Positions 2,257 to 49,432 of a DNA stretch of 64,000 bases are shown here, piece by piece. Both the position numbers and the translations under genes were made by a program. The first letter of the stretch is position 1. Every line of letters starts with the position of its first letter. The DNA is from Turnera subulata. Taxonomy: Eukaryota > Streptophyta > Magnoliopsida > Malpighiales > Passifloraceae. The stretch is from the NCBI GenBank assembly GCA_028386065.3, contig JAKUCV010001068.1:656138-720137 (forward strand), read 5' to 3'. Under the pieces are notes generated by a model. The model was not told the origin of the DNA. It made no database searches and saw only the letters and a list, made by a program, of their open reading frames with translations.

Positions 2257-2294
2257 AGTCTACCCCCCTTAAAAGAATTTCGTCCCCGAAATTC
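2257..2294 (-). other. Polypurine tract and conserved inverted repeat before the 3' LTR (element A)
   Basis: On the minus strand the 3' LTR is preceded by the purine-rich AAGGGGGGTAGAC and, just before it, by the inverted repeat GAATTTCGGGGACGAAATTC (2275-2294). The same block precedes the 3' LTRs of elements B and C, which fixes the orientation of all three. Confidence 0.75.
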
Positions 2295-2398
2295 AATCGT
2301 CACAGCTTACGTCAGCAATCTTCTCGAGTACTCCACATCCTGTCTACTGCACCCAACATGAAATCTCGTATACACCCTTATGCATCTTCTCGTCCTCT

Positions 2399-2404
2399 TA
2401 TAAA
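2399..2404 (+). promoter_or_regulatory. TATA box of antisense ORF A (element A)
   Basis: TATAAA lies 43 bases upstream of the ORF A ATG, followed by the conserved AACC. Elements B and C have the same box 42 bases upstream of their ORF A ATG. The conserved spacing supports a real antisense promoter, though the implied leader would be very short. Confidence 0.6.
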
Positions 2405-2441
2405 AACCAAACCTCAAAATATGGCAAACTTACTCTCTACC

Positions 2442-2840
2442 ATGGACTCACCAATAAGAACTCGAACTACCTCTGACTCAGAGGAGTTAAGTTATACTGG
2501 TGGTGTTAATCCCTTTACGGACTCCGATGAAGAATAGCCGAAGAAACGCTTCAAGACGAACATCATCGGTCTCAAGGAACATATGGCCGTCTCCAGGAGA
2601 AGGCGAAAGAAACCTGCCGGCAAGGAGGAGCCTTCCGGTCGCAAGGATGCTGATGATAGGAAGGGCAAGGCAACTGCTCCCAACAAAACATCACTGCAGA
2701 AACTGAAGCTTCTAACAGCTTCACTGAAGGAGATCAACACGGCGGTGATGCAGATCGAACAGGCGTGTATGGGACTCTCCTCCCAGATCGAGAAGATACA
2801 AAAATTTGTAAAAGATTTAGAGAAGCAAGTAACTCCATAG
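2442..2840 (+). pseudogene. Antisense ORF A, element A copy (nonsense mutation)
   Basis: A 133-codon frame starting MDSPIRTRTTSDSEE and ending QVTP, homologous to the intact 125-aa ORF A of element B. A TAG at 2535-2537 (codon 32) interrupts it just before the basic PKKRFK stretch. It has an acidic serine-rich N-terminus, a Lys/Arg-rich centre (codons about 33-70) that looks like a nuclear localisation signal, and a C-terminal Leu/Ile heptad-like stretch that could form a coiled coil. I do not recognise the family. It is antisense to the element, with its own TATA box upstream. Confidence 0.6.
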
Positions 2841-3334
2841 AGTACTCCTTCTCTATTGTAATATGTTATCAAAAATAAATAAAGTGGTTGTTTTTATTTA
2901 AACAAAACCTTTTATTAACAATCCAAAAACGTATATAGCGAAAATGAAATGTTTTAAGGCAACATAAAAACCAACAGAAAAGAAATACACCAAACCCTTT
3001 TGTTAATAATCCAAAAACATAAGTAGCGGTAAAATTTCTTTGAAGAAAAGAAATCAACAAAAAGGAAATAGAACCAAACCTGTTATTAGTAACCCAAAAA
3101 CACAGAAGGTAGTAAGAGCAAATATTTCATGTAATGATAAAAACCAGCAAGGAAGAAATAAAATCAATCATAAAGAAGTCAAATAAAACTCGCTTTCCTT
3201 ATCCAGCGCTCTAGACCGGTCACATAGGTCCTCGATTCTGAGCATCGCAACTTGCTGTTGCTATCGGAGATGTCGGTTCTCTACGTGAAAACATCGTTCG
3301 TTATCTCGCGAGACGAGGATGATGTCACAAACAT

Positions 3335-3601
3335 GTGTTGATCCACTGGAAGAATCGGCAACCACTCGTCCATAAACTCTACAAGAGCGAAAACGTATTT
3401 CCGGGATTCGTATCTCTCCGTGATGTCCAAACAGGAGCAACCTTGTCGATCATGCATCGTACTCGAGGTACCGTCCCATCAATCTGGCCACGTTGGCCTC
3501 TGATGGATGTGATAAAAGGTGTAGAAAATATAGAAAAAGCCATAAAAAGAAAAGCCAAGATAGCCAGGGTGAAAGAAGATTGTGAGATGGAAAAGAGCTG
3601 A
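3335..3601 (+). CDS. Antisense ORF B, element A copy (88 codons, no ATG)
   Basis: A frame between ORF A and ORF C whose second half is conserved in elements B and C and stops at the equivalent TGA in all three. It ends in a strongly basic, helix-like segment (IKRKAKIARVKEDCEMEKS). There is no ATG at the conserved start; it opens at GTG, so it may be a downstream exon or a decayed gene rather than a complete gene. It contains a CATCGTACTCGAGGT block preserved in all copies. Function unknown. It has no recognisable promoter of its own. Confidence 0.3.
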   Translation: MLIHWKNRQPLVHKLYKSENVFPGFVSLRDVQTGATLSIMHRTRGTVPSIWPRWPLMDVIKGVENIEKAIKRKAKIARVKEDCEMEKS

Positions 3602-3811
3602 AAAACACTTGCGTTTGTAGCCCAAAACACACAAAGTGATGAAGAAATAAATGAGGCAACGGAAAAATTTTCAAAAAGCAACACCTTAAAGAACGAAAAC
3701 GGTTTGGAGCTTTGTGAAAAAGAAATCTGCTTTACCGATCACCGAAAAATCTTTTAGACTCTTCCAGGGATAGGTGGGGTCTAAACTTTGAAAAACAGTT
3801 AATCATATCTC

Positions 3812-3817
3812 TATAAA
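3812..3817 (+). promoter_or_regulatory. TATA box of antisense ORF C (element A)
   Basis: TATAAA inside TCTATAAAAGGC lies 105 bases upstream of the ORF C ATG. Elements B and C carry TATAAAAGACGG at 120 and 116 bases upstream. This second conserved TATA box suggests that ORF C is transcribed separately from ORF A. Confidence 0.6.
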
Positions 3818-3916
3818 AGGCAAAGTAGTAGAAAGCAAATAATCAAAAAGCATTTTAAAAGAGAGATTTGTAAAACATGTTCAGAGATAAAAACACACAA
3901 AACACGTCGAGACAAA

Positions 3917-4602
3917 ATGCATGCTCCATCATCTGTCTTTTTTGTTGAGGGTGCCTCCTTAGGAAGGAGGAATCGGCTGGCCTACAGCCTGATAAACGAG
4001 CGTCCCTAGGAACTACCAAACGAGCTCGGCAGGATGCCTCGTCTGGTCTTCGTCAACGAACTCTACTCGTCGAGGTTCTTTGTCACTCCTATGGAAGAGA
4101 CGTTCTTCCTAGAGGACCAAAGCACCCTAAGAACTTCCTTCTACGGCTCGGCCAATTCCGTCATGTTTTTTTTATTTCTGAAAGACTTCAGGAATTCAAC
4201 CTAGAGCCCACTTGTCAATTCCTGGACCAAGACACCTACTACCAGCTTTCAATGACTGCCCAGAGCATGCCCCGAGTAACTTGGTTACCACCAACTTGGC
4301 CAAAGGCCCATCTACTGATGTGGAACTATAGAGGAATCGCTAGGCGTTCCCAGGAGTTTTCGCGTACCTTGAGAGATCTGAAGAACCAGTACAAGCCCAA
4401 CATGGTTCTGCTCACGGAGACCCAGTGGCAGCCTGAAGACGATCACAGTGTTATCCCACTTCGTTTTCCTCCGGCAAACCAGTTAGAACTTCCTGGTCAG
4501 AACAACACGGGCGGTATGTGGTTTTCGTGGAACGATAGCATCAGAGTCAACATTACCAATGACTCTAATAGCTTCAGGGTCAACGTTGTACCAAGAAGAT
4601 AA
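3917..4602 (+). pseudogene. Antisense ORF C, element A copy (nonsense and frameshift)
   Basis: This copy aligns over its whole length with the intact 227-aa ORF C of element B. It carries a TAG at codon 31 (4007-4009) and a 2-base expansion in a T run near 4165, which accounts for its length of 686 rather than 684 bases. The C-terminal part is open from 4252 to the stop at 4602 and keeps the endonuclease-like motifs WNYRG and LLTETQ. Compared with the element B copy, I count 26 synonymous against 14 amino-acid-changing codons in the first 83. The biochemical role is unknown. Confidence 0.65.
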
Positions 4603-4823
4603 ATAATAATAATAATGTAATAATAATATTAGTAATAATAATAATATTTATGTTTCTGCATGTTTATGGCATCAATTACCTCTTATGTGAATGTTCTGTG
4701 GCAAGCTGGCATCCCTCTACTGGATCCATCATGTATTAACTAAATGATATAAATGCAAAATGATAAAAATATGGAGCAAGATATGCACAACAAATAAGCA
4801 AAACAGTCACCCAAGGACCTACC
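4603..4823. other. Non-coding spacer between ORF C and the primer-binding site (element A)
   Basis: It holds a (TAA)n-rich stretch at about 4603-4650, then sequence shared with elements B and C (ATGGATCCA-type block near 4718-4735). No gene is seen. Confidence 0.6.
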
Positions 4824-4842
4824 GCCCGCTCCGCTACCAAAA
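4824..4842 (-). other. Primer-binding-like site of element A
   Basis: On the minus strand, TTTTGGTAGCGGAGCGGGC directly follows the LTR end GTTTCA. It resembles the plant initiator-Met tRNA binding site (TGGTATCAGAGC) with two changes. The same site is present in elements B and C and, as TGGTAGCGGAGCC, in the Copia element at 56182. Confidence 0.7.
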
Positions 4843-7800
4843 TGAAACACCCTGACCTCCATTTACCCAACTAATAGTAATTACTGAACAACAGTGCCGT
4901 CACGTGGCACAAACTGTGTGAATACAAACGAAGCCCGACCCAATGATAATATCAATCACCCGACCTCGGATACCTCAACAACAATAGCACAGCGGAAGCG
5001 TTTAAATACTCAAGACACCATATGCAAAACCTGATGCAATCTAATAGATTTGAGTCCTGCCCGAGGATAAACCGCAGCTTGCCTTGTATGTTCTTGTACT
5101 CAGCACAAAACAAACTACGTGACCGAGTCACGCAGGCGAGGGGTGAGTCCGAAGTGCTCAACGGGTAAAATCCATAAGTAAAGACAAATACACAGGCAAT
5201 CAATAATAACCAAGTCACAGATAATCACTTCACTAACGGTAACAGACAGAAGGTACTCTATGTTATCCTAGACACACTAGTCCAATTTTATTAACAGGGC
5301 CCCTATCACAAATTAAATGGTGGCCGTCGCCAGGTAGTCAAGCTAGCTAGCCCGTGGACCCTGCCCTGGCACCTCCACGTAATAATTGGCACAGACAAGG
5401 AGCAGACCCCAAGCACACTCTCCCCCAGCACCATAAAATAAAAGACTACCATCTGGCTGTTCCAACATTTAACTGTGACTTACTAGACGTCTAAGTATTT
5501 CCATTTTATTATCTTCTTTTCCCTAGACTTGTTACTATGTCATTATTAACCGACTATTATCTCATTATCCCGAGCAGGCTCACGGCCTCTCCGCTCGTCT
5601 GGATAATAACTTAACCAAACTGTCATCACATAATAGTACCCCCGGTACTCAACTCACACAATTCTCACAGTCAACAACAACAACAATAATCTTACTATTA
5701 CCAACAATTCCAACATCATCAATAACATCAACAATCAATCACAGACGCAGAAGTAATATCGTACCAGCAAATATCACATATAGTAAACAAACAACAACTT
5801 GATATCACGGGCGGTATATAAATATTTACTTATCCTCACCTGGTATGTCTCTGAAACTGGCACATAATCCATATGGCTTTGTCTGTCCCTATATCATGTC
5901 AATACTTACAATCACCTTATAAAGCACACCGAAGAATGCAATGCATGAGATTAATTTATTATTCGGCTTATCCACAATTAACATCGTTATCGTCGTTCCA
6001 AAACCGTCTCCATTAAACAATGCTTTTACGGCTGTAAAATAATTATAACCCCGTAAAGTACTTGTAGATAGCATTTTATAAAATAATTATTCCCAATAAA
6101 ATAATAATTATGTATACGACAATTATAGTAATTAAAATAGTGCGACGACGAATTTTCATAATAGGCGTATAATTAACATATCCGAAAATAAAATCGTTAA
6201 ATGGAAAACATTTCCTTCTGTGAGAAATTAACATAGTGGATACGTTGCAAATACAATATTCGTAAATACATATGTACGTTTATAACCGATATTTATAAAT
6301 AGAGTAAGGGTAATAATAATACCATAGTTCTTTAAATAATATGGCGGATATTTAACAATTAATAGAATAAAACTCGTACGTAATATAATAAGATTAGTTT
6401 AGCTTATAATGACTTAAGCTATACGTTAACAATATACACCTAGAACATAGTAATATTTATAATGTTAAATAAAAGACCATCATACGACATAGTAAATTAT
6501 CCAAGTATATTATGGTCATAAAATAAATTTTTGCAGGTTTTATATATTAGATTTAATAGATACGTAATTGAATCCAAAATTGACATCTTTTTTAATTAAA
6601 TCACTAACCACTTAATTATATAATACGTTCACATATTTTACTTAGTCGGTTTCGTTATTAGGTCCGTCAAAGCATACGTGTCACAGGAACATGGGCCTCT
6701 ACACGTTCGGCCCGTTTTCGAGTCCGTTGTGCAAACCGAGCCCAAACCCGAGCTCATGGTGTAAACGAGTCCAAGGATTTACCGAAGCAACCCGTCCATC
6801 GAGTTCCGTTTGCTGAAGAATATACTGTTCATGCCGGAAGATACCCGAGACACCGAAACTCGTCGGATTCCGGCCAGGGGTACTGTTCACAGCAGAAAAA
6901 CACCCCAGAAATCCAACACACCGTCCATCAACAACGCATCAATCACCCGTGAGCAGCAACCCGCTGCCCATTCAGCCTCATCGGCAACAACATCACTGAA
7001 GTCCACCACCGTCAACACACCATCAACGTCGTACCACCCCACATCCACCTCGGCAACACCCAAACACAGTCCCACAAACAACGAATTGAACCAAATTAGC
7101 CACGAACCTTAGCTAATCAAAACAAAATAAAACAAAGAGAGGAGAGAGGGAGGCGCGACCATGACTCACCCAACCTTGGTGTCGTCTTGGTGGAGGAGGG
7201 AAGAAGGGGAAGGAAAGAGAAGAAGGAACGATGGTGACGACAGCTTTGAGTTGCAGCGGCGGCGGCGAGTGACGGATCGGAGGCGGGTCGGTAGAAATCA
7301 AGGAGAGGAAGAGGGTGCGGCGGTGGCGGCGGCTTGAGCAGCAGATCGGAGCCGATGCAATCGGGCTCCCATCCTCCAGGCGCGTCTTTGCCAATTGGAG
7401 TGTCCATCCTCTCGATTCGCTGCTCTTGACGGCGACGAGGTATGCTTCTCTCGGTGGTGTTGAGCACGACTGTGGCGGCACTCGCGAGCAGTGGCAAGGG
7501 CAGCGATGGGGGAAGCAAGGGAGGTTGAGGCGGAGACGAAGAAGGGCAGGAATAAGGAGGAAGGGTGGCGGTGCTGTGGTGGTTCGGTGTGGAGGAGGAG
7601 AAGATATAGGGAAGGGAAGGGGAAGGAGATAAGTTAAAGAAAAGAAAGAAAAGAAGATGGTGGAGGGGGCCGGTTGGTAGAGAAATCGGGAGAGAAAAGA
7701 AGGAAAGGAGGAGAAAAGAAAGGAAAAAGAAAAGAGAAAAAAAGGAAAAAGAAGATGCTTAGCAACGGTGTTGTCGGGCAATAATTATGCCTTGCCAACA

Positions 7801-8335
7801 CACGAAACGACGTCGTTTTGGACGTTTAGTAAGCTGCGCAGTCAACGCTCACAAGCCCTTAGTCAAAACGCAGTCTTTGTTGTGTTTTATGTTTTGGCTC
7901 AGCCAAAACTACGTCGTATCGGTCGAAACAACGCTAAATCTTGTGTTTAACATTTTAACTTAATCCTTGTAAAACATAGACATAATTAACAATTACTCTT
8001 TTATAAATTCAAAATAAATCTCCAAAGATTAATTTATTAAATTTCATAGAAGTAAAAAATGAAATTTCTCTTTAAATTATAATTAGTATATTGTCGTAAC
8101 AAAAAAATTCCGGCATATTAATAATAATAGTATTATTATTAATGTTGATTAGTAAAATAATGATAATAATGGTAAAAGTAATAATAATTTCATAAATTAT
8201 AAGAATAATAAAAATACTAATGAAAATTGACTCGGACTGATAAAATTCTCGATTAACCGCGATAAAATTTTATTTACCTATGTAAAAGTTAAAACAACAC
8301 GGTAAAATTGCAAAAAATTTACCCGGGTCGTTACA
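4843..8335 (-). repeat. 5' LTR of element A (3.5 kb)
   Basis: The sense strand runs from TGTAACGACCCGGG (8335) to GTTTCA (4843). About 517 bases in, it carries the AAACGACGTCGTTT palindrome (7805-7818), followed by a CT-rich GC-rich region, a donor-like GGTGAGT (sense strand, about 7165), a small exon-like block ending in AG|GTGAGGAT (about 5837) and a hairpin CTGCGTGAC-TCG-GTCACGTAG (5115-5135). This architecture recurs in all the long LTRs here. The middle (5700-6700) is AT-rich and featureless. Confidence 0.8.
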
Positions 8336-9485: not shown

Positions 9486-12400
9486 TGTATCAACCCGGGT
9501 AAAATTTTTTATTTTTACCGGGACTGTAAAAGTCTTTTTACCGTGATTTACTGTTGAATTAATCTTGGGTAATTAATTCAAGGTAAATCGAGCGTCGTTT
9601 TTCGAAACCGAGAGTTTTCCCGCGCTCGTTATTTTTCCATGGATTTTTCGCGCCTAAGTTGGTATTTTTCGGGTCCCGGGATTCTCGGAAAAATCACACC
9701 GGAAAATAACAAAGGGGGTATTTCAGTTATTTTCTGGTCCGGTCGGGACACGACTGCGTGATTGAGTCACGCAGCCGCCCCTTCCCTGTTATACCTGTGA
9801 GCCGCTTGAGTGCCCCGTGACCCTGCCTGTCCCTTTCTTTTTTTTTTCCTGCCTCTTCTGCTTCCTTACACACGATCACCTTCACTTTCATCTCCTGTAA
9901 CCCAACTCTGTCCATTTTCTTCCTCTGAAAAATAGCAGTGTAACCGAAGCCTGAAAGAAAAGAAAAAGAAAGGAAAAAAAAATAAACACCCACACACTCA
10001 TCAGCCAAAACTGTGTCGTTTTGGCAAGAAACCATCCAGACCCCACCTTCTTCTTCCTTTCTCCTCCACTGCCACCAACCCGACGACCCGCCACCAGCAC
10101 CACCACTGCAACGCCGCCACCATCTACGCCACCTCCCAACCACCATCGCCAGCCGACGACCCGACCTCTTGTACGCCGCCCTCTCCTCTCTCCTTCCTCC
10201 CTCGCACCGGCCGCGATCCATCATCACCTACACCGACACCATGACCACCACACACCACTTGCGTCGTAGCCACCTCATCGTGCCATCCCCTTCCTCTCCC
10301 TTCATCCTACCTCGCCGTAACTCGACACCACCTGCCTCCTCCTTGCTCGTCACTGCAAGACGACACCACCGTCGCCGCGCCGCTCCTAGCTTACGGACCA
10401 AGACGTGAGCTCGCCTTCTGCCGAGGACTGCACCTCGACGCCGCCACGTTGCCACCCTGCCCTTGCACCGCCAGACCAGCCGTCCGTGCTCGTGCTTCTC
10501 GTTGCCGGTGTGCCGTCCGCGTCGCCTGCAAGGTATGCCAGGTTGAAGAAGGTCCTTTGGGCTGGGTCGAACCCATGGGATTGTCAACAGGCCCGAATGC
10601 TTGGCCCAAGTCTGGGATATGGGTCTCCATTTCCTGGGCTTGAGCTTTGGCTTGGACCTGATTGGAAGGGGCCTGGGCTAGTTATTTGGGCTTGCTGCTA
10701 TGTAAGGCCTAGGCTGGTACTGTATGGCCCAATCCGGTATTAATAAAAAAAATAATAGATATACCTATATAATTATAAAACATATTTCCTGGGAAAAATA
10801 TATGTATAGTTTTATAAATTATATAATTTTTGGAAATAGGCAGAATAATTAATTTGACCTGAGATAATTATTCATTGGTTATATCTAGAAAATAATTACT
10901 TAGACGTGTTATTTTGGGAAACTAAGGTAATTATGTTATGGTTGTTTTAATAATAATATGGTAAGTATGAGTTACAGTATTTTGGAAAACAATATATATA
11001 AATATATGAAGTATATGAATATATTTTACTGGAAAAAAATAAAATGATGTCACTAACATTATTTTGAGAAAATGTAATTATAAAATGAATTTCCTTTGAA
11101 AAATTATTATAGGGTTAAATAATTTTAGAAAAGGGGTATACATACTATGAAATGTTTTGGAAATAAATATGGTATCGTATATTCTGAGAAATATTTCACT
11201 AAGTATATATGATAATATCTTTTTGGAAAAAAAATAATAATATAAAAAAATAATAATAATATTTGGTAATTATAATTCGGCAAGTAAAATAATCTTATGG
11301 AGATGATAACGTATAACCGAGGGGGGGTTTAATTTACAATTTGTGGCATCATAGTATACCGATTATGTGCATTTATGTGAGCATATTGTCTTGTTGTATA
11401 GGTTTGATATCGAGCAGTTTCCTGTGGAACCGGCTTTGGACCGATTGATGTTTTCGGAATTGAGTAATCGGCTAAGGTGAGGATGGATAACCCTTGATAT
11501 ATGCCTGTAATACCATGTGTACTTTGTTGTTTGAATGAACTGCTGAGAGGGTCATTGTTGGTTATTTAACTGTTATGGTTATTGATGCTGTCGTTGATGG
11601 ACTGTGTTATTGGTCGAGTGAATATTGTGACGAACCGTTAATTGTGAATAATTGGTGTTATATGTGTTGTTGTTGGATATTTGATAATATGGAATTGCTT
11701 TGGTTATTTGGCTGCTATGCTCATTGTTGTTGTTTCTATGATGTTGATTTGCTTGATTGAACCGCTGTGTTGACTGTTATTGGTTTATTGGATATTGTGT
11801 TGTGATTGACGTTGATCTGACAATTGTGAATGATTGGTGTTAAGATATGTTGACGGTTTAGTCTGTGGGATAACCTTTGGTAATAGTAAGTTGAACAACT
11901 TGTGAAATTGAATATTGGAATTGTGATGATATATATTATTGTTGAATATTCGATGATACAGATTTGTTGATGTAGTTTCTGTGTTTGATTCTTGATATTG
12001 CTCTGCTTGATTGAACTGCTAAGTTGACTGTTAATGGTTTCTTAGATACTGTGTTGCGATTGATGTTGGGTTGTGAATGATTGATGCTATGAAACTATGG
12101 ATGGATTGGTCTATCGTATAATTTGAGTTAATAGGAAGTTGGATAATTGTTTGACTGATTTGGATACTGTGACTGATGTCGATAGACTGTGTTGTGACTA
12201 GTTTGTCAAAATAAACTATGACATGGATAATTGGGAAAAAGAAAATGGAAATTGGAAGTTGATTTGAGATTTGGTTTTTTTTTTTTTTGGATGATGATGA
12301 CATAATTATCACGTGGTAAGTAGAGGTATGACCGGATGGTTTGTGACTGTTTTGTGGTGGCCATGATTTGGGTTACTTGTGATGGGCATGTTGATGCCGG

Positions 12401-13278
12401 TTTGATTGGGATGTTGATCCCGGATTTTTGATTGGGATGTTGATCCCTGAGATTGTGATTGGGATGTTGATCCCTGAGATTGTGATTGGGATGTTGATCC
12501 TTGAGGTTGTGATTGGGATGTTGATCCCTGAGATTGATATTGGGATGTTGATCCCTGAGATTGTGATTGGGATGTTGATCCCTGAGAATGTGATTGGAAT
12601 GTTGATCCCTGTGATTGATATTGGGATGTTGATCCCTGAGATTTGATATTGGGATGTTGATCCCGGGTTCTTTTTTATCAGGCACCATAAACAGGTTGAT
12701 AGCCTGGTACGACCTTAGCTTATCCGTGACGGAATCGGAAAGATAAAAATTGGAAAATGGATTTTTTATTTAGTCTTAATAGTCCTTGGTACGTTTGGGT
12801 CAAGTCTTTGAGTTTGGTCTGTCTTGTACGGTATTATCTTTGGTATGATTGTGACTATTGTCTGTATTTCTTCTTTGAAGTATTATAGTTGCCTGCATAT
12901 CTCTGTTTATCCTTCGTCGGTGAGCACTTCGGACTCACCCCTCACCTGCGGGCTTTCATCCCGTAGGATGAGTTATTTGTTGTACAGGATTGGTACATTC
13001 CAGACAGGCTGCGGCGTTATCCTTTGGACAGGACTTGGATCCATAGTTTGCATCTATGTCGCATACAGTGTTTGTGTGAGTTATTAAGTCTTCCGCTGTG
13101 CATGTTTTTACTATTATTGGGCCATTGGGCCGATTATGATGATTATTGTTGTTTTTATTTTGGGCTGTTGAGCCCGTGTTCCTGTTGTATACACTGTATG
13201 CTGGGCTTGTTTTGATTGGGTCGTCACAGTTCCGGTACGTGTTTACTGTGTACGGTAAATACGGGACGAGGCGTTTCA
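9486..13278 (+). repeat. 5' LTR of element B (3.8 kb)
   Basis: Starts TGTATCAACCCGGG and ends GGCGTTTCA. In order: a promoter-like region with hairpin CTGCGTGA-TTGAG-TCACGCAG (about 9760-9781) and AAAACTGTGTCGTTTT (10007-10022); a GC-rich exon-like region ending at CAAG|GTATG (donor 10533); an AT-rich intron-like stretch; acceptor TATAG|G and a 75-base exon (11402-11476) ending AG|GTGAGG; a hairpin array (12385-12664); a double hairpin (12919-12966); and acceptor TACAG|G (exon from 12988). The open frames inside are low-complexity and are not called as genes. Confidence 0.88.
12385..12664 (+). repeat. Hairpin minisatellite in the 5' LTR of element B
   Basis: Ten units of about 27 bases, each holding GGGAT-GTTG-ATCCC, preceded by GGCAT-GTTG-ATGCC (12385-12398). 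Because the unit is nine codons long it leaves a spurious repetitive frame on the minus strand. Spacers are repeats, not unique, so this is not a CRISPR array. Confidence 0.85.
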
Positions 13279-13298
13279 TTTTGGTAGCGGAGCGGACG
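13279..13298 (+). other. Primer-binding-like site of element B
   Basis: TTTTGGTAGCGGAGCGGACG follows the LTR end, one base shifted from the usual TGG start. It resembles the initiator-Met tRNA site with two differences in the TGGTATCAGAGC core. Confidence 0.7.
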
Positions 13299-13549
13299 TT
13301 AGGTCTTGTTGGGCAGTCCTTGTGTGTTTGTTGTTTTTGTTTGCATAGTTCGCTCCATTTGTTTATTATTTAATATTATTTTAGTTAGTGCATTATGGAT
13401 CCAGTCAAGGGACACCAGCTGTCGCGGAACATACACATAAGAGGTAAATGATGCCATAAATAAGCGAAAATATAAATATTATTAATATTGCAAATATTGA
13501 TATTACAAACGGAAACATTACATTGATATTTTATAAAAGAAAAATACAT

Positions 13550-14233
13550 TTATCGGCTTGGAACGACATTGACCCTGAAGCTGTTTGGGTCGTTGTTGAT
13601 GTTGACTTGGATGCTATCGCTCCACGAGAACCACATGCCGCCTCTGCTGTCCTGACCAGGAAGCTCGAACCGGTTTGCTTGAGGGAACCGGAGTGGGATG
13701 AGACCGTGATCGTCTTGAGGTTGCCACTGGGTCTCCGTCAGAAGAACCATGTTTGGTTTGTATTGGTTCTTCAAGTCCCTCAGGGTACGCGAGAACTCCT
13801 GAGAACGCCTTGCGACTCCTCTGCAGTTCCACACCAGTAGTCGGGCCTTGGGCCAAGTTACGGGCAGACGAGTGACTCTGGGCATGCTCTGGGCCGTCAT
13901 CGAGTGCTGATAGTAGGTACCTTGCTCCAGGAAGTGGCAAGTGGACTCCAGGTTGAACTCCTGAAGCCTTTCGGAGATGAAGAACATGATGGAGTTGGCC
14001 GAGCCGTAGTAGGAGGTCCTCAGAGTGTCGCGGTCCTCTAGGAAGAACACCTCTTCCATTGGAGTGACGAAGAACCGCGATGAGTAGAGCTCGTCGACGA
14101 AGACCAGTCGGGGCATCCTACCGAGCTCGTTCGGTAGCTCTTCAGCATGCTCGTTGACCATGCTGTAGGCCAGTCGGTTCCTTCTGCCTAGGTTGGCACC
14201 TTCGACGAAGAAAACGGCAGATGGAGCAGGCAT
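13550..14233 (-). CDS. Antisense ORF C: 227-aa protein with a half LINE-endonuclease-like domain
   Basis: An intact 684-base frame, antisense to element B. Residues 1-110 start MPAPSAVFFVEGANLGRRN and belong to no family I recognise. Residues from about 125 resemble the N-terminus of LINE AP-endonucleases: LLVWNCRG, then a spacer and NMVLLTETQ, then GGMWFSWSDSIQV. The chain ends at VNVVPSR, before the GDFN and SDH motifs that complete the active site, so nuclease activity is not expected. ATG 14233 is chosen because it is shared by all three copies and lies 120 bases downstream of a TATA box. The same length (684) is kept in element C. The role is unknown; a domesticated accessory protein of the retroelement is an inference. 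Confidence 0.7.
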   Translation of the reverse strand: MPAPSAVFFVEGANLGRRNRLAYSMVNEHAEELPNELGRMPRLVFVDELYSSRFFVTPMEEVFFLEDRDTLRTSYYGSANSIMFFISERLQEFNLESTCHFLEQGTYYQHSMTAQSMPRVTRLPVTWPKARLLVWNCRGVARRSQEFSRTLRDLKNQYKPNMVLLTETQWQPQDDHGLIPLRFPQANRFELPGQDSRGGMWFSWSDSIQVNINNDPNSFRVNVVPSR

Positions 14234-14347
14234 CGTGTTTGGACGAGTGGGTATTTTGTTTTTGAGCGTTGTGGTTTTGTTTTTTTTTCTGAGCGTTTTG
14301 TTAGCTTTTAAAATGCTTTTGATAATTTACACCTCACCGCTCCGTCT

Positions 14348-14353
14348 TTTATA
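14348..14353 (-). promoter_or_regulatory. TATA box of antisense ORF C (element B)
   Basis: Reads TATAAA on the minus strand within GTATAAAAGACGGAGCGG, 120 bases upstream of the ATG. The TATAAAAGACGGAGCGG block is identical in element C (49543-49548). Confidence 0.65.
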
Positions 14354-14474
14354 CAGTTATGGGGAGCGTGATTATTGTTTTTGATTTTCAAGATTTGCTT
14401 TTCGAAAATTTGCCGTTGCGTCATTTATTGCTTTGTTACTTTATACGTTTTTCTGGCTGCAATGCCAGAGTTTT

Positions 14475-14759
14475 TCAGCCTTTTTCCATCTCTTGCTTTT
14501 CTTTGGCTCTGGCTACCTTGTCTGTTCTTTTCATGGTTTTACTATATTTTCTTGCATCATTTATCACATGCATTTGCGATCGTTGAGGCTAGACGGATGG
14601 GACCATACCTTGAGTAGAGTGCATGTGCGACAAGTTTACAGCTGTTCGGACACCGTGGAGAGATACGAGACTTGACAGACGTTTTTGGCCCATGCGGAAA
14701 TTGTGAACAAGTGGGTAACGTCTCTTTCGAGGGACACAGGACGCTCTCGTGATCGTCAC
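14475..14759 (-). pseudogene. Antisense ORF B, element B copy (in-frame stop)
   Basis: Homologous to the open frame at 49670-49954 in element C, with the same start region (ITRASCVPRKRRYPLVH) and the same basic C-terminus ending at TGA. A TAG replaces the CAG of element C near 14600. It begins at GTG or ACG codons with no ATG, so its status as an independent gene is uncertain. Confidence 0.35.
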
Positions 14760-15048
14760 CGTTAGCTCCGTATGTCACGTTTCTCGGGATCGAGGATGCT
14801 TAGGACCGATTTGGGCGTTGATCATGAAACATGTTATGTTTTAATTCCTTTTGTTTTGATTTTGTTAAACGAGTTTTATTTTTGATTTCTTTATGTTTGA
14901 TTTTATATTTTTATTGTTAAGTTTTATTTTGCCTTAAGATGTTTTAATTTTCCGTTTAACATAAGTTTTCGTAACATAAGAATTTTTGATTTAAAAAGAA
15001 ACTTATTTTATTTATTTCATAATAGTTTTACAACGGAGAAGAAGTACT

Positions 15049-15426
15049 CTATTGAGTTACATGCTTCTCTAAGTCTTTTACAAGTTTTTGTACGTTCTTC
15101 ATGTGAGGGAAGAGCTCCGCACATGCCAGTTCGATCTGTGCCACCGCCGAGCTGATCTTCTTCAGTGAGACGTTCACCTGCGTCAGTGTCTGCTGCGGAG
15201 TGCTGCTCCCAGCTACCGCCTTGCCCTTTCGATCCTCAGCCTTCTTGCCGGCACGCTTCTTCTGTCGTTTTGGGGAGACGACCATGTGTTCCTTCAGGCC
15301 GACGATGTTCGTCTTGAAGCGCTTCTTCGGAGGTTCTTCATCGGAGCTTGTTGGGAAAGCAGTGCCGCCGATGTAGCTGTTGTTCTCGGAATCTGAGGTA
15401 GTCCTTGATCTCAGTGGAGAGTCCAT
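15049..15426 (-). CDS. Antisense ORF A: 125-aa basic, coiled-coil-like protein
   Basis: An intact frame, antisense to element B. Residues 1-30 are Ser/Thr/Asp-rich (MDSPLRSRTTSDSENN). The stretch PPKKRFKTN at about 34-42 and the cluster KRQKKRAGKKAEDRKGK at about 54-70 look like nuclear localisation signals. Residues about 80-125 form a Leu/Ile/Val heptad-like helix ending KLVKDLEKHVTQ. A size of 125 aa is shared with element C, and the element A copy has 132. The ATG is shared by all copies and lies 42 bases from a TATA box. I know no family. A nucleic-acid-binding or Gag-like small nuclear protein is possible but unproven. Confidence 0.6.
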   Translation of the reverse strand: MDSPLRSRTTSDSENNSYIGGTAFPTSSDEEPPKKRFKTNIVGLKEHMVVSPKRQKKRAGKKAEDRKGKAVAGSSTPQQTLTQVNVSLKKISSAVAQIELACAELFPHMKNVQKLVKDLEKHVTQ

Positions 15427-15462
15427 GACTGTGTGTAAGTACGCCAGTCATGAGGTTTGGTT

Positions 15463-15468
15463 TTTATA
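15463..15468 (-). promoter_or_regulatory. TATA box of antisense ORF A (element B)
   Basis: CTCTATAAAAACC on the minus strand, 42 bases upstream of the ATG, as in element C. It lies just inside the 3' end of the element, about 145 bases from the 3' LTR. Confidence 0.65.
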
Positions 15469-15573
15469 GAGGACGAGATGTCGCTTAAGGGTATAAGCGG
15501 TATCTCGGGTTGAGGTTGGACACGTGGCAGAGTGTGCCAGAGGCTTATCGTGGTAGGACCCACGGATAAGACC

Positions 15574-15611
15574 GAATTTCGGGGACGAAATTCTTTTTAA
15601 GGTGGGTAGAC
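15574..15611 (+). other. Inverted repeat and polypurine tract before the 3' LTR (element B)
   Basis: GAATTTCGGGGACGAAATTC (15574-15593), then TTTTTAAGGTGGGTAGAC, then the LTR start TGTAAC at 15612. This block is characteristic of many plant Ty3 elements (recalled, not searched). Confidence 0.75.
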
Positions 15612-42611: not shown

Positions 42612-44635
42612 ATAGATGTAACAGCCCGGGTAAAATTTTTGATTTTTACCGAGACTGTAAAAGTCTTTTTACCGTGATTTACCGAATGAATTAATCTTGG
42701 GTAATTAATTCAGGGTAAATCGGGCGTCGTTTTTTCGAAACCAAGGGTTTTCCCGCGCTCGTGATTTTTCCGTGGAATTTTCGGGCCTAAGTCGGTATTT
42801 TTCGGCTTCCGGGATCTTCGGAAAATTACACCGGAAAATAACTAAGGGGGTATCAGTTATTTTCTGGTCCGGTCGGAATACGACTGCGTGATTAGTCACG
42901 CAGCCGCCTTTGCCTGTGCAACCCGTGTCTTCCTGTGAACCTGTGACAATCTTTTTCTTCTCTTTTCCCGTGACTCCAGCCTCCATTGCACCAACTCCAA
43001 CAATTTTTCTGTCTTCTGCAATTTTTCCCTGCACCAACACTGCCCAGCACCCTGCCTTCTTCTTCAAAACCAGAAAAGGAATAAGAAAAAAAATAAAACA
43101 AACAACAACCACACACACACGCGCCGGACCACCACCATCACCAACAATCCACCGCCACCGTGAACACCGAGGCCACCTGCAACCACCTCGCGCGCCTCCA
43201 CCACAATACCACCACCTCGCCGCCTGTCCTCTCCTCCTTCGCACCTTGTCGCCGCGACCCAGCCGACGTCGCTCCTCCCCGAAGCCGTCATCGCCGTCCT
43301 CTTCACGAGCGAAACCACCGCCTACACGCTTTGATCAGCCGCCGCTTCAAGCCGCCTGCAGTCTCCCCGACATCGCCACCTTCCTTGCGTCGCCGCCTGC
43401 ATCGCCGTCCCGTGTCCTGCCTCGTCGCGCCGCCGTCGTCTGCAAGCAGAGGTGAGCAGACCCGTGTGAGGAGGATCCGACCCGGGTAGCGTAGATGTGG
43501 GTTGACCCGCGCCTGGGCTGTGGGTCTGGGCTGTTGTGTCGATGGGCCGGCTGCACGGGCCAAGGCCTGGGCTCCTGTTTAGGGCCTGGGTTTGGTGCTG
43601 TGCTATGCCTGGGCTGACACTATTTGGGCCCAGTCCGAATCAGTTTTCAAAAAAAAAAAGAATAAATGTATAAATATAATTATGGAAATATAAATATATA
43701 TATATTATGGATTATAATTTTTCTTGGAAAATATAAAAAAAAAGGTATATGGGTATATTTTGTAGAAATAAAAGAAGTAACTACTTGATATAATATTTTC
43801 AAGGAATTAAAGTAATTATAACATGATTATGGTAAATGCCTTTAAGGAGATATATTAAGGAAATAAACAGAAAAATATATATATGTATATTTATAATTCG
43901 TATTTATTTTCAAAAAATAAGTCATATAATTATATTCTCTGGAAATGATTTTCCTAAAATAATAATATTTAGTAATTAAATTTTGGCAAGTATAACATTT
44001 TATGGAAATAACTTTGGGATAAATATATATAAGTTATAATTCTTAGGAAAATTATGATGTTTATTATTTTGGAAAAGTATAATTAATTTATGAAAAATAT
44101 TTTGAAAAGAGTTTTAATTAAAGTATGGTACCGAAATTATATTCGGATATACGTACGGTACAATATTTTCGGTAAAAGATGATAATAAAGGATATGAACA
44201 GGAATGGGTTAATTTCGCAGTATTGGCATCATAGTGTACCGATTATGCGCATTTATGTGAGTATATTGTTTTGCCATATAGGTTTGGATATCGGGCAATT
44301 TCCCCGAGGAGCCGGCTTGGGACCGGTCATTGTCTCCGGAGTTGAGTAATCGGCCAAGGTGAGGATGGATTTCCTTCAATATGTGCCTGTATTACTCGGT
44401 TGTTGTGTTTGATGATTGTTGCATTGTTGGTTGATGCATTTGCTGTGGTATGTTTCCGGATGTTTATCCCAGTGTCCTGATTGTTTTTGGGATGTTTATC
44501 CCCGTGTTGAGTTTTGGTTGTTTATCTCGGTGTCATTTGTTTAAACTATAATGGAATAAATAATAAATTGTGATAAGGATGTCGATCCTTGATTTTGGTT
44601 AGGGATGTCTATCCCGGTATTTTGGTTAGGGATGT

Positions 44636-47600
44636 TGTAACAGTCCCGGTAATTTTTATGTTTTTACCGTCACCGTAAAATGTATTTTTACAGTTAATTA
44701 CTATTTAAATCAATCTTGGGTAATTAATCAACGGTAATCTACACATCGGATTTCGAAACCGAGCAGTGTTCCACGCTCGGGATTTTTCTGCGGAATTTTC
44801 GGACCGAAGTTGGCATTTTTCGGGTCCATGAATGTCGAGAAAAGTCAGGTTTAACCTCGAATTATCCGGCCAGAAATTAAGTCAAGGGGGTGTCATTAAT
44901 ATTTTCTGGTCCGGACGGGACACGACTGCATAATGCAGCCGCCTTCTCCTGTGTGCCCGTGAACTGCTCCTGTGTGACTTGTGACCTGCATAATTTATTT
45001 TGCCGTTTTCCTCCCTGCAAACAAAAAAAACACTATAACATCAACCATCCAGCTCACCCTCTTCTGCAAAAAAAATTTCCTCTGCAACTCCCATCTCCAG
45101 TTCAAATCCTCAAACAAAATACACAAACCAGTTCTCTTCATTTCATCAAAACCGGAAAAAAAAAAAAAAGAAAAGAAGAAAAGAGTAAGAAAAGAGAACG
45201 GAAAAGAAAAAAAACAAAAAAAAGAGAAGAAAAGAAGGGAACAGAAAGAAAGAACCGGGGAAGGAAAAAAAAGGGAAAAGAAAAGGAGAAAGGGAAGGGG
45301 CCGCCGGCACCACCACGCCGCCATCACCACTCCCACCCTCTCCTCGCTGCAGCACGCCGGAGGAGTCGACGACAGCAGCTCGCCGTCGCTAGCAGCCCCA
45401 CCGGACGCGAGCTCGAGTCGCCACCTGCAGATCCGCCCTCCACCGCCGCCACCGTTGAGGAGTACGCTCTGACGGGGTCACGTCGCGCCGCCCGCAGCCG
45501 CCACAACACCTCGCCCTCCTCGCCGTCACCTCACGCTCCCGGTGCCGCCTGCCGTGTCGCGCCGTCTGCGCCGCCGTCGCGTATAGGTGAGTAACCCGGT
45601 TGCAACCGGGTATGCGCTGATGGGTGAAGACGACCCGAATAACAGGGTCGCGGGTCGGCCGTTTTATCCGGGTCGCGGGCTGAAATGAATGGGTCGGATG
45701 GGGTTAGGCTGATTAGTTTGGGTTTTGGGGTATGGGCTTGGGTTGTGTTGGGCTTAGAGGTTAGGTTTGGGTTTTGAGTTGGTTAATGGGTTGGGTTGCG
45801 ACTTGGGTTAAGGATGTAGGCTAGTGGGCTGGGGTGTGTGTGGGCTTAGTAATTGAGTTGGGCCAGCACTGTTTAGGCCCAGCCCAGGGAAAATAGGAAG
45901 ATAAATTTCTAAAATAGGTTTAAAAATTCTGGAAAAGGAATAAATTGGAAAAAAAATAATAAAAAGGGATATATTTTAGGTAAGTAGTATTCTGGAAATA
46001 AAATAGATATAATTTGGGAATAATTAGTGCCTTAGGAAAATATAAATATGATAAACAATAGTAGAATAATTAAGTTGAGGAGATGATCATGGAAATTATA
46101 ATAATAGTAATAGTAATTAATAATCTTGGAAAAAAAATACATACTTATAGAAATAAAAATGGAAAGGGTATCATCAAAGAAAATACGTACCGGAATAATA
46201 CCCGGAAGTAAGTGTAGGTATAAGAATAGTATTATTTGGATACCGGGAAGTAAATGGTGAATTATGACGACGATAAAAATAACCCGGGGAAGTAACCGAG
46301 ACGAGTCAGTATATAATTTCCGTAAATACAGTAGAAGCATGATATTGCATACCACTTATATGTGCATATTATTTGCTTGATATAGGAGTTGATAACGAGC
46401 TGGTACCTGAGGAGCCGGACTTGGAGTCTGTTGGACAGTTCCAAACTTGATATCGGCTAAGGTGAGGATGGATAACCTTGGATATGTGCCTGTAGTGCTG
46501 TGTGTGAATTTGTTGTTTGCTTGAACTGTTTATTAGCTGTTATATGATTGCTATGGAAATTGTTGATGTTTACTGTTTGCTATTTATTGTTGTGGACTTT
46601 GCCATGATGTTGCTGAAATGTGCTGCTGGTTTGTGATTTAGAGAGAAGTCTATGAACTGTTAATTGTGAGAATTTAGAAATAAGAAATTGTTGGCTGGTT
46701 GAGTTTGAGAAATAATTTGTGATGATTAAAAGTTGAGTTATGATGATAGAGTTATGGGATTGGAAATTAATTTGAGATGAAGATATAATTGTCACTTGGA
46801 AAGTAGAGGTACGACCCGATGGTTTGAAAATTAATTCTGAGATGCTATGGTTGGTTACTTGTTTTGGTTGACATGATGATGACTGTGGTTGGGGTATACC
46901 AAATACCCAGTGGCTCGGATATGCCGAATATCCGCAGTGGCACAGATATGCCGAATATCTGCTTGGCATGTTGTCTGTGGTTGGGGTATACCGAATACCC
47001 AGTGGTTTGGATATAACAAATATCCGGTTTTGTGGTTGTGGATTCCAGTATGGTAAAAGTGGTGTGATTCTCTTAGACCTAGCATCCGGAGTTAATTAAT
47101 AACCAGGTACGACCCTAGCTTGTCCAGTGACGGGCCCGGAAGATAAAATTGGTATTAAGATAATAATTAAGCATTCTTTTGGTCTTGGTTAGTTGCTTAT
47201 AGTAGTTTACTTGTGTTGTGATTGGTTGTGTTTACTGTTGAGATTGTTGTGCTTATTTCGAAAGTATTACAGTTGAATATATCTCTGTTTATCCTTCGTC
47301 GGTGAGCACTTCGGACTCACCCCTCGCCTGCGGGGTTTCATCCCGTAGGTTTGGTTGATCGTAGTTCAGGTACGATGTCCGTTAGCTGCTGCTTACTTCT
47401 CCACCTGACTCCGGATCCATACCCCGCTGCATCTGCATTCTAGTCTTCCGCTGCTTGTCCTTCTTTTATGATATTGCTGTTGTTGCTGTACTATATCAGA
47501 TGTTGATTAGTTTGGTGTGTAATGGATTGAATAATGGTCTCCGGGATCGGGTGACGAATATCGTATTTGGGAATTGCTTGTATTGTAATATACATTGTAT

Positions 47601-47677
47601 GTACTGTCTGCTACTGTAGTAAGAACAATTCCGGCACGTGTTTACCCTGTACGGTAAATACGGGTCGGGGCGCTTCA
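44636..47677 (+). mobile_element. Solo LTR S2 nested in the 5' LTR of element C
   Basis: 3042 bases from TGTAACAGTCCCGG to GGGGCGCTTCA, flanked by gatgt (44631-44635, 47678-47682). The 3' LTR of element C keeps the empty site (TTAGGGATGTTGATCCC at about 51281), which proves the insertion. It shows the common layout: donor TAG|GTGAGT (45597), acceptor TATAG|G, a 76-base exon (46386-46461), hairpins (46892-47025) and acceptor TTCAG|G (47370). Confidence 0.9.
46892..47025 (+). repeat. Covarying hairpin array in S2
   Basis: Five hairpins with five-base loops: GGGTAT-ACCAA-ATACCC (46892), CGGATAT-GCCGA-ATATCCG (46916), CAGATAT-GCCGA-ATATCTG (46943), GGGTAT-ACCGA-ATACCC (46984), GGATAT-AACAA-ATATCC (47009). 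The stems differ from each other by compensating base changes. Confidence 0.85.
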
Positions 47678-48475
47678 GATGTTGATCCCTGTGATTTGAT
47701 TTTGATGATGGTAATATAATTGTCACATGATAAGTAGTGGTACGACTCGATGGTTTAAGACTGTTTTGTGGTGGCTATGACCTGGGTTACTTGTGATAAG
47801 CATGTCTATGCTTGGGATGTCTATCCCGTGATAATTTTTTGGATGTCTATCCCTGGGTTCGTATTTTTGGGATGTCGATCCTTGGGTTCTCTGGATTTGG
47901 TCTGGCACCCAGAATATGTTGATAACCAGGTCTGACCTCTAGCTTATCCGTGACGGGGCCCGGAAAGATAAAACTGGAAATTGGATTTTATTTCAGTCTT
48001 TTTCGTCTTGGACCAATTTTGGGTGGAGTCTTTTGATTTGTTATATTTTGGCTGTTATGCCTGTGTTTTCGACTTGAGTAATTATAGTGTTGCATATTGA
48101 TTGTCTATCCTTCGTCGGTGAGCACTTCGGACTCACCCCTCACCTGCGGGCTTTCATCCCGTAGGTTGAGTTATTTGTGGTACAGGTTTGGTGCATTCCA
48201 GACAAGCTGCGGCGCTATCCCTTGGACAGGGCTCGGATCTATAGTTTGCATCAGTGTCGCATACAGTGTCTTGTGAGTTATTAAGTCTTCTGTTGTGCAT
48301 TATTTTTACTATTGTTGGGCCATTGGGCTGGATATGATGTTATCATTGTTTTTATTTTGGGCTGTTGAGCCCGAGTTACTGTTATATACATTGTATGCTT
48401 GGCTTGTTTTGGTTGGGTCGACACAGTTCCAGCACGTGTTTTCTGTGTACGGTAAATACGGGTTGGGGCGTTTCA

Positions 48476-48495
48476 TTTTGGTAGCGGAGCGGGCG
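48476..48495 (+). other. Primer-binding-like site of element C
   Basis: TTTTGGTAGCGGAGCGGGCG follows the 5' LTR, as in elements A and B. Confidence 0.7.
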
Positions 48496-48748
48496 TTAGG
48501 TCTTGTTGGGCAGTCCTTATGTGTCTGTTGTTCCTGTTTGCATAGTTCGCTCCAATTGTTTATTATTTTATATCATTTAGTTAGTGCATTATGGATCCAG
48601 TCAAAGGACGCCAGCTGTCGCAGAACACACACATAAGAGGTAATGATGCCATAAATAAGCGGAAATATAAATATTATTAATAACACTAATATTTTCATTA
48701 CAAACATAAATATTACATTGATATTTTTTTAAAAAAATAAAATTACAT

Positions 48749-49432
48749 TCATCGCCTTGGAACGACGTTGACCCTGAAACTAGTGGGGTCATGGTTGATG
48801 TTGAACGTGATGCTGTCGCTCCACGAGAACCACATGCCGCCTGCGTTGTTCTGGCCAGGAAGCTCGAACCGGTTTGCTTGAGGGAGCTGGAGTGGGATGA
48901 GACCGTGATCGTCTTCAGGCTGCCACTAGGTCTCTGTGAGAAGAACCATGTTTGGCTTGTATTGGTTCTTCAGGTCCCTCAGGGTACGCGAGAACTCCTG
49001 GGAGCGCCTAGCGACTCCTCTGCAGTTGCACACCAGTAGTCGTGCCTTTAGCCAAGTTACGGGTAACCGAGTGACTCTGGGCATGCTTTAGGTCGTCATC
49101 GAGAGCTGGTAGTAGGTACCTTGATCCAGGAAGTGGCAAGTGGACTCTAGGTTGAACTCCTGAAGTCTTTCCGAGATGAAGAACATGATGGAGTTGGTCG
49201 AGCCGTAGTAGGAGGTCCTCAGAGTGCCATGGTCCTCCAAGAAGAACGTCTCTTCCATGGGAGTAACGAAGAACCTCGATGAGTAGAGTTCTTCGACAAA
49301 GACCAGACGCGGCATTCTGCCGAGCTCGTTCGGTAGTTCTTCTGGACGCTCGTTGATCATGCTGTAGGCCAGTCGGTTTCTTCTGCCTAGGTTGGCACCT
49401 TCGACGAAGAAGATGGATGAGGGAGCAGGCAT
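48749..49432 (-). pseudogene. Antisense ORF C, element C copy (two nonsense codons)
   Basis: 684 bases, the same length as the intact copy, starting MPAPSSIFFVEGANLGRRN. It stops at TAA (49088-49090) after 114 codons and at TAG (48926-48928). In the other copies both sites are CAG. The endonuclease-like part follows the first stop and keeps RNA-endonuclease-like spacing (ATGGTTCTTCTCACAGAG), though W of WNCRG is Cys. A TATA box lies at 49543-49548. Confidence 0.65.

What the first reader, a model, noticed from the sequence alone, without database searches (positions are those of the whole stretch)
13279..15611. Antisense gene cassette carried by gag-pol-less LTR elements
Elements A, B and C lack gag-pol, but each internal region (2.3-2.6 kb) carries the same frames on the strand opposite to the element: ORF A, ORF B and ORF C in the same order and spacing. 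Direction of the element is fixed independently by the LTR starts, primer site, purine tract and inverted repeat GAATTTCGGGGACGAAATTC. ORFs A and C are intact in B. Antisense frames are known in some Tat-lineage elements, but this set matches nothing I recognise.
Basis: partly seen in the sequence, partly recalled or inferred. Interest (0 to 1): 0.92.

Follow-up and report, generated by a model that had tools for sequence, protein, structure and literature searches.

The report
Jumping DNA with two backward genes
A very abundant plant retrotransposon that has lost the genes for copying itself carries instead two small genes on its opposite strand, and comparing copies suggests that natural selection has preserved both proteins, as if this "parasite's parasite" had genes of its own.

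Summary
The core observation holds. Elements A, B and C lack gag-pol and carry ORF A (227 aa in B) and ORF C (125 aa) antisense to the LTRs. In 18 aligned copies the two antisense frames have median dN/dS 0.08 and 0.13; the spacer gives 0.6-0.9 in every frame. "ORF B" shows no coding constraint (0.77). Each ORF has an antisense TATA box and downstream AATAAA-type signals: two compact genes.

In the host genome (518.7 Mb) the 3' motif occurs 1,915 times and the PBS junction 1,952 times; 951 motif copies, about half, have the exact ORF C start at the expected spacing. Of 33 copies paired by coordinates, 23 have 2.3-2.6 kb interiors (17 of 23 with that ORF C start), five 4.7 kb and two 0.4 kb (0 of 7); three are intermediate or longer. 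One 4.7 kb copy, read at its 3' end only, is a chromovirus pol ending at the same motif. I read these as chromovirus satellites with an antisense two-gene cassette in place of gag-pol, not Tat elements. ORF A's C-terminus resembles part of a LINE-type endonuclease domain (weak). Function is inferred; expression and other species could not be tested.

The parts
9486..13278 (+). Element B 5' LTR (3793 bp), TG...CA, with 27-bp tandem repeats at about 12399-12664
   Evidence: 97.1% identical to 15612-19406; boundaries and TSD ACGTA
13279..13293 (+). Element B primer-binding-site region TTTTGGTAGCGGAGC; 10 of 12 positions like a tRNA-iMet site (recalled comparison)
   Evidence: present in A, B, C and in 19 of 20 loci, two of them with a small change; LTR end + PBS 20-mer 1,952 times in the genome, control 0/0
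13550..14233 (-). ORF A, 227 aa, antisense gene; residues about 131-213 weakly resemble the N-terminal part of an EEP/LINE endonuclease
14348..14353 (-). Antisense TATA box of ORF A (TATAAA in GTATAAAAG), 120 nt before the ATG
   Evidence: TATAAAAG at this place in 17 of 18 copies, displaced in element A
13478..13483 (-). AATAAT polyadenylation-like signal after ORF A
   Evidence: window coordinates worked out
15049..15426 (-). ORF C, 125 aa, antisense gene: Ser/acidic N-terminus, lysine-rich NLS-like stretches, C-terminal part that looks coiled-coil (by eye)
15463..15468 (-). Antisense TATA box of ORF C (CTCTATAAAAACC), 42 nt before the ATG
   Evidence: TATAAA or TATAAG at this place in 18 of 18 copies; spacing 42-43 nt in the 11 copies with TATAAA
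15007..15016 (-). Two overlapping AATAAA signals after ORF C
   Evidence: AATAAA/AATAAT 50-60 nt after the search anchor in 18 of 18 copies; coordinates
14592..14774 (-).
   Evidence: dN/dS 0.77, no periodicity, no Pfam match
15574..15611 (+). Inverted-repeat motif GAATTTCGGGGACGAAATTC plus purine tract: relic of a chromovirus pol 3' end
   Evidence: 20-mer 1,915 times in the genome, control 0/1; same motif at the pol stop in L047; related signature in L041-L046
15612..19406 (+). Element B 3' LTR
2258..8335 (-). Element A interior and 5' LTR (3' LTR starts at 2257 and runs left); ORF A remnant within 3917-4599(+), ORF C remnant 2442-2834(+)
42617..52079 (+). Element C: 5' LTR split by solo LTR 44636-47677, interior 48476-50841, 3' LTR 50842-52079; ORF A 48752-49432(-) and ORF C 50282-50656(-), both with stops; TSD ATAGA

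Best explanation
A satellite retrotransposon. SHOWN: a large family with chromovirus-type ends has an interior of leader, antisense ORF A gene, spacer, antisense ORF C gene, then pol-end motif and purine tract. A 4.7 kb class with the same ends exists; the one member read, at its 3' end, has pol there (gag was not read). Both antisense frames show purifying selection between copies. Each has a conserved TATA box and poly(A)-like signals on the antisense strand. INFERRED: gag-pol was replaced by the cassette; the sense transcript from the 5' LTR is copied and integrated in trans by proteins of the chromovirus partner. The antisense genes are expressed from their own promoters; antisense orientation lets them keep a promoter and poly(A) signals without cutting short the genomic RNA. 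Most likely the products act in the nucleus as accessory factors that help copies of this family stay expressed or be favoured by the helper, acting preferentially on their own source copies so that selection can keep them. ORF A's truncated EEP-like part probably binds nucleic acid or protein rather than cutting DNA. The confidence given is for the architecture (helper-dependent element with two selected antisense genes); for the regulatory role alone I would say about 0.35.
For: dN/dS 0.08 and 0.13 in the two antisense frames, with spacer and leader as internal controls; third-position periodicity confined to ORFs A and C; window copies not chosen by any protein search agree for ORF A (B-A 0.09, B-C 0.16, A-C 0.11). 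TATA boxes and poly(A)-like signals. Colinear pairs: by my reading of the two capped lists, wherever a listed ORF C lies within 2 kb of a listed ORF A it is on the same strand and upstream (29 of 29). Size classes and ORF C signature. The one 4.7 kb copy read has integrase zinc-binding, SH3_Tf2-1 and Chromo matches, and its pol stop codon overlaps the shared 3' motif. Lysine-rich ORF C sequence. Other chromovirus pol frames of up to 2,312 aa are open in this genome, so machinery may be available.
Against: No expression data. All activities are inferred; no usable fold was obtained (pLDDT 28.7). Only one 4.7 kb copy was read, for 1.4 kb, and its own frames are broken, so an intact helper with these LTRs was not shown and gag was not seen. 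Helper and satellite LTR starts are only about 80% alike over 86 nt. Loci came from a similarity search for ORF A, which favours conserved ORF A (not ORF C, nor the window copies). Stop counts ignore frameshifts. Purifying selection in a trans-mobilised element needs cis-preference or a few master copies, neither tested. Two of the three window copies are broken in both ORFs, and ORF C is less constrained in pairs with element A (0.43 and 0.35). Six of 23 copies in the 2.3-2.6 kb class lack the exact ORF C start octamer.
Confidence: 0.8

Rival explanations
1. Ordinary large retrotransposon derivatives of an undiscovered autonomous element that carries gag-pol plus antisense ORFs A and C, like Retand; the ORFs are maintained in that parent and passed on by deletion or template switching.
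For: Antisense ORFs beside gag-pol are the known pattern in Retand (PMC11963269; PMC7264820). Chromovirus pol domains are abundant here. Two of the 33 paired copies have an ORF C start and a longer interior (3.5 and 5.8 kb); they were not read.
Against: In the one 4.7 kb copy read, pol runs straight into the 3' motif with no room for a cassette at that end. None of the five 4.7 kb copies has the ORF C start signature. Cassette copies as far apart as A and B (ORF A dS 0.94) both lack gag-pol.
Confidence: 0.12
2. The antisense frames are captured host genes carried as passengers, with no role for the element.
For: Retrotransposons do capture genes (PMC7264820). ORF A has a weakly recognisable EEP-like piece.
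Against: Passenger genes should decay neutrally; dN/dS of 0.08-0.13 across many insertions and the retained promoters and frames argue for use. Every ORF A locus that shows both element ends has it antisense between them (16 of 20 loci; the other four lack an end). A non-element host homologue was not excluded, because only the best 150 of 8,190 candidates are listed.
Confidence: 0.06
3. The useful product is antisense RNA (for instance small RNAs against the helper), and the open frames are incidental.
For: Antisense RNA roles have been proposed for such elements (PMC7264820). Antisense promoter-like boxes are present.
Against: RNA function does not predict codon-position-specific conservation confined to two frames. 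It may still act in addition.
Confidence: 0.05
4. The proteins serve the life cycle structurally rather than by regulation: ORF C as a basic RNA-binding or particle protein and ORF A as its partner, adapting satellite RNA to the helper's particle. (This shares the satellite architecture with the best explanation and differs only in the role.)
For: ORF C is basic and has weak coiled-coil-type Pfam hits. Nonautonomous elements must parasitise active ones to propagate (PMC11963269, passage).
Against: Separate antisense promoters and poly(A) signals are unlike gag expression. No gag similarity in Pfam.
Confidence: 0.2

Closest known systems
Antisense additional ORFs of Retand/Tat elements (Grande gene23, RIRE2, Retand ORF4 with TRP28) and PvRetro13
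   Same: Conserved genes opposite to the LTR direction near the 3' LTR; own promoter and nuclear product in Grande; function unknown (PMC7264820, text parts 1-2; PMC11963269, abstract and passages).
   Different: Those lie between pol and the 3' LTR, and 97% of Retand clusters have TRP28. Here gag-pol is absent, the ends are chromoviral, Pfam finds no TRP28, and there are two genes with separate promoter-like boxes.
Large retrotransposon derivatives and nonautonomous partners such as Dasheng (helper RIRE2)
   Same: Long LTRs and no gag-pol (recalled for the class); a nonautonomous family with a putative autonomous partner (PMC5473765 passages).
   Different: As I recall them these carry no conserved genes of their own; here two protein frames are under purifying selection.
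Chromoviruses (Tekay-type recalled) of the same genome
   Same: Pol-end/purine-tract signature, PBS junction in the size class of the one read, related LTR start.
   Different: No gag, protease, RT, integrase or chromodomain detected in element B's interior.
Plant LINE endonuclease (EEP, PF03372), such as the LINE at window 63241-63999
   Same: ORF A residues 131-212 align with the start of the LINE EEP domain (27% identity, E 3e-4); 15 of 17 aligned ORF A sequences or pieces match PF03372 at E up to 1, best 5.2e-4.
   Different: Only profile positions 2-86 of 225 match, below Pfam's cut-off; hhalign gives a probability of only 13.7%; the C-terminal part with catalytic Asp/His (recalled) is missing, and the N-terminal 130 aa match nothing found.
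Satellite viruses (concept)
   Same: Depend on a helper for replication yet keep genes of their own.
   Different: A conceptual parallel from memory; no sequence relation was tested.

Membership tests
Nonautonomous LTR retrotransposon (LARD-like) | Two LTRs, target-site duplication, PBS and purine tract | tested here: met
   elements B and C; element A's far LTR end was not located
Nonautonomous LTR retrotransposon (LARD-like) | No gag-pol in the interior | tested here: met
   no sense ORF of 100 aa from ATG in B; nine sense frames without a credible Pfam match
Nonautonomous LTR retrotransposon (LARD-like) | Non-coding interior (as recalled for LARDs) | tested here: not met
   two antisense frames at dN/dS 0.08 and 0.13
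Retand/Tat element with antisense ORF | Antisense ORF with TRP28 (PF04195) | tested here: not met
   Pfam scan of ORFs A and C at E up to 10 gives no PF04195
Retand/Tat element with antisense ORF | gag-pol of the non-chromovirus Tat lineage | tested here: not met
   no gag-pol found in B; the one partner read has SH3_Tf2-1 and Chromo
Chromovirus (Tekay-type) by ends | Same PBS junction and pol-end/purine-tract motif as a chromovirus of the genome | tested here: met
   one chromovirus copy, G000:C186, whose 3' end was read; related pol ends in L041-L046
Chromovirus (Tekay-type) by ends | RT/INT phylogeny places it in Tekay | not testable with these tools
EEP endonuclease (PF03372) | Match over the curated cut-off across the domain | tested here: not met
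   17.3 bits against a cut-off of 24.5, profile positions 2-86 of 225
EEP endonuclease (PF03372) | EEP fold | tested here: inconclusive
   model with pLDDT 28.7
Expressed gene | Antisense transcript and protein | not testable with these tools
   no RNA data held

The most novel reading that the evidence does not exclude
A gag-pol-less retrotransposon is a true satellite with a genome of its own: two non-structural proteins, encoded antisense under their own promoters, that act (nearly) in cis to hijack or shield it from helper and host, so that selection at the level of a non-autonomous element keeps genes working, with one protein built on a truncated LINE endonuclease.
Probability: 0.4. Interest if true: 0.85.

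Novelty: new variant of a known kind. Interest (0 to 1): 0.73.

Why it matters
Antisense ORFs of plant retrotransposons have been known for years without a known function, and because they sit beside gag-pol it is hard to say what they add. Here nature seems to have separated them: an abundant element keeps only the antisense genes and keeps them under strong selection. That makes it possible to ask what such genes do for an element that makes no enzymes, and how selection acts on a parasite's parasite. ORF A also bears on the open origin question: it gives weak, below-cut-off sequence evidence that a piece of an antisense ORF came from another transposon (a LINE).

Tried and rejected
Rejected: ORF B as a gene, although its frame is open in 17 of 18 copies. 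Rejected: Tat/Retand affiliation. Rejected: chance open frames. Led nowhere: AlphaFold of ORF A from the window's own pieces (pLDDT 28.7, so no fold search was made); PDB sequence searches (best E 0.1, unconvincing, none for ORF C); NCBIfam (weak EEP for ORF A, E 0.013); viral and prokaryote contig scans (12 and 7 pattern matches, no relative confirmed, as expected for a plant); Rfam and tRNA scans of the window (none). A DNA search with the 3' junction, a DNA search with the leader and a search for LINE endonucleases in the genome were asked but did not complete. Literature: six searches listed no paper on antisense genes in gag-pol-less chromovirus derivatives; I judged this from titles and starts of abstracts, and most subscription papers are not held. 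Seen of papers: PMC11963269 abstract and passages; PMC7264820 text parts 1 and 2 of 3; PMC6317226, PMC5473765 and PMC9289625 passages only.

Limits: loci of the dN/dS test were picked by similarity to ORF A. Of 20 loci, L001 is the window itself and L004, L014, L017 and L019 were dropped from the 18-row alignment because the script did not find both ends. dN/dS medians use pairs with dS above 0.02. Stop counts, the colinear-pair count and the TATA check are my reading of printed tables.
Full report
WHAT WAS CLAIMED AND WHAT IS THERE. The window lies in a 518.7 Mb, 7,125-contig genome. Element B has LTRs 9486-13278 and 15612-19406, 97.1% identical, with TSD ACGTA. Element C has TSD ATAGA; its 5' LTR is split by a solo LTR with its own TSD GATGT. 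Element A lies on the minus strand. In all three the 5' LTR ends ...TTTCA, followed by TTTTGGTAGCGGAGC, and the 3' LTR is preceded by the GAATTTCGGGGACGAAATTC motif (one mismatch in C) and a purine tract. So the direction is well fixed, and ORF A (13550-14233) and ORF C (15049-15426) are antisense. They are open in B, stopped in C and interrupted in A. B's interior holds no sense ORF of 100 aa (ATG start), and nine sense frames have no credible Pfam match (one chance-level hit at E 0.094).

SELECTION. One search scored the best 150 of 8,190 candidates for ORF A; all are 92% identical or more, and 106 of 150 have no stop (my count). Of 20 loci, one (L001) being the window itself, 16 show both interior ends, in each case with ORF A antisense, and ORF C was found in 17 of 20. 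Eighteen copies (window A, B, C and 15 loci) were aligned; identity, computed without element A, shows three-base periodicity over ORF A and ORF C and not elsewhere. Over pairs with dS above 0.02 the median dN/dS is 0.08 for the ORF A frame (IQR 0.07-0.11) and 0.13 for ORF C (0.11-0.18). The other frames over these regions give 0.94-2.5, except the mirror sense frame (0.21 and 0.24), which is expected because its codon positions line up with the coding frame. The spacer gives 0.61-0.87 in the six frames. The ORF B frame gives 0.77 and is open in 17 of 18 copies; the other frames there give 0.62-1.22. Copies were chosen by ORF A similarity, so the ORF A value may be biased downward; they were not chosen by ORF C, and the window copies were not chosen at all (ORF A 0.09, 0.16, 0.11; ORF C 0.43, 0.21, 0.35). 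Six of 18 copies have a stop in ORF A and four of 18 in ORF C, frameshifts not counted.

TWO ANTISENSE GENES. A TATAAA or TATAAG box stands at the same place before ORF C in 18 of 18 copies, and TATAAAAG before ORF A in 17 of 18, displaced in element A. Where TATAAA and the start codon were located, the spacing is 42-43 nt for ORF C (11 copies) and 105-122 nt for ORF A (15 copies). L012 appears to have lost the ORF A start codon. AATAAA/AATAAT follows ORF C 50-60 nt after the search anchor in 18 of 18 copies, and such signals follow ORF A in 17 of 18 (L012 could not be tested). In the rows printed the antisense TATA (TTATA on the sense strand) is, by eye, present in all but one (C177).

GENOME-WIDE COUNTS WITHOUT A PROTEIN CRITERION. 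The 20-nt 3' motif occurs 1,915 times (control 0/1) and the 20-nt LTR-end/PBS junction 1,952 times (control 0/0). The exact ORF C start octamer at 132-160 nt from the motif occurs 951 times (control 0/0), so about half (49.7%) of the motif copies carry it exactly. I paired the 100 listed motif places with the 93 listed PBS places on contigs up to C362: 33 pairs under 7 kb. Twenty-three have interiors of 2,327-2,627 bp (one of them a second pairing of a copy with a doubled motif), 17 of 23 with the ORF C start; five have 4,690-4,766 bp and two 383-397 bp, 0 of 7 with it; three others are 3.5, 5.4 and 5.8 kb (the first and last with it). The other 67 motif places had no PBS partner by this exact test. 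The ORF C protein search scored 150 of 3,877 candidates, 12 with a stop by my count.

THE PARTNER. One 4.7 kb copy was read for 1.4 kb at its 3' end (L047). Its frames match Integrase_H2C2 (1.1e-18), SH3_Tf2-1 (1.7e-24) and Chromo (4.1e-7). The stop codon of the last frame overlaps the first two bases of the GAATTTCGGGGACGAAATTC motif; the 36-38 nt motif/purine-tract stretch is 94.7% identical to B's, and the LTR start is 79.5% identical over 86 nt. This copy's frames are broken and were not altered. Six other chromovirus pol ends (L041-L046, four of them of one kind) have the related signature AAATTCG, none or one base, GGACGAATTT, plus purines before the LTR. I infer that gag-pol was replaced by the cassette and that the helper works in trans; neither was observed, and gag of the 4.7 kb class was not read.

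THE PROTEINS. ORF A residues 134-213 match Exo_endo_phos positions 2-86 of 225 below the cut-off (E 0.0041); 15 of 17 aligned sequences or pieces match, best E 5.2e-4. It aligns with the LINE endonuclease at the end of this window (BLASTP E 3e-4; hhalign E 0.002 with only 13.7% probability). The equivalent N-terminal position, the LVWNCRG and LLTET motifs (recalled as LINE EEP features) and the missing second half suggest a derived, non-catalytic EEP piece. For the first 130 residues nothing convincing was found. ORF C is 125 aa with KKRFK and KRQKKRAGKK stretches and weak coiled-coil-type Pfam hits only (E 0.038-0.2). No useful fold was obtained.

MECHANISM. Best reading: a helper-dependent element with two accessory genes. 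Antisense orientation allows each gene its own promoter and poly(A) signals without truncating genomic RNA (general reasoning, inferred here). Selection on a trans-mobilised element requires that the products favour their own source copies or that few master copies exist; either is testable. Counter-silencing/expression support is my first choice, helper-particle adaptation my second.

COMPARISON. Antisense ORFs are known beside gag-pol in Retand/Tat elements, mostly with TRP28 (PMC11963269, PMC7264820); nonautonomous partners such as Dasheng are known (PMC5473765). Both ideas meet here; I found no description of the combination in six searches of an open-access library. I file it as a new variant of a known kind.

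Mended: the ORF B frame's openness in 17 of 18 copies is now told; "at least half" became "about half"; the partner is said to show pol, not gag-pol; the pol stop overlaps the motif by two bases; PBS counts per locus.

Noticed in passing
window 44636-47677: Solo LTR of a related subfamily with TSD GATGT, inserted into element C's 5' LTR next to a GATGTTGATCCC-type repeat.
   Followed up: partly
window 12399-12664 and 18527-18798: 27-bp tandem repeats inside the LTRs, with somewhat different units in the two LTRs of element B.
   Followed up: no
window 62509-63999: LINE-like frames: a DUF4283 match (E 1.5e-8) followed by an EEP endonuclease frame (PF03372, E 3e-11) running to the window end.
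   Followed up: partly
window 24538-24853: Near-perfect palindrome, two 158-nt arms without a spacer (99% complementary): foldback element or assembly artefact.
   Followed up: no
window 22901-23673 and 27204-27994: Direct repeat pair about 84% alike, 4.3 kb apart, perhaps LTRs of another old element.
   Followed up: no
window 56000-60678: Broken-looking copia element with a Retrotran_gag_2 frame (E 3.7e-11) and short terminal repeats, 84% alike.
   Followed up: no
G000:C212 near 14751-15134 and G000:C291 near 15430-15799: Copies with only about 0.4 kb between PBS and 3' motif: a possible miniature third size class with the same ends.
   Followed up: no
L036:2594-3274 (minus strand): A further ORF A copy, 87% identical to ORF A of B, with no stop, beside the targeted copy.
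   Followed up: partly
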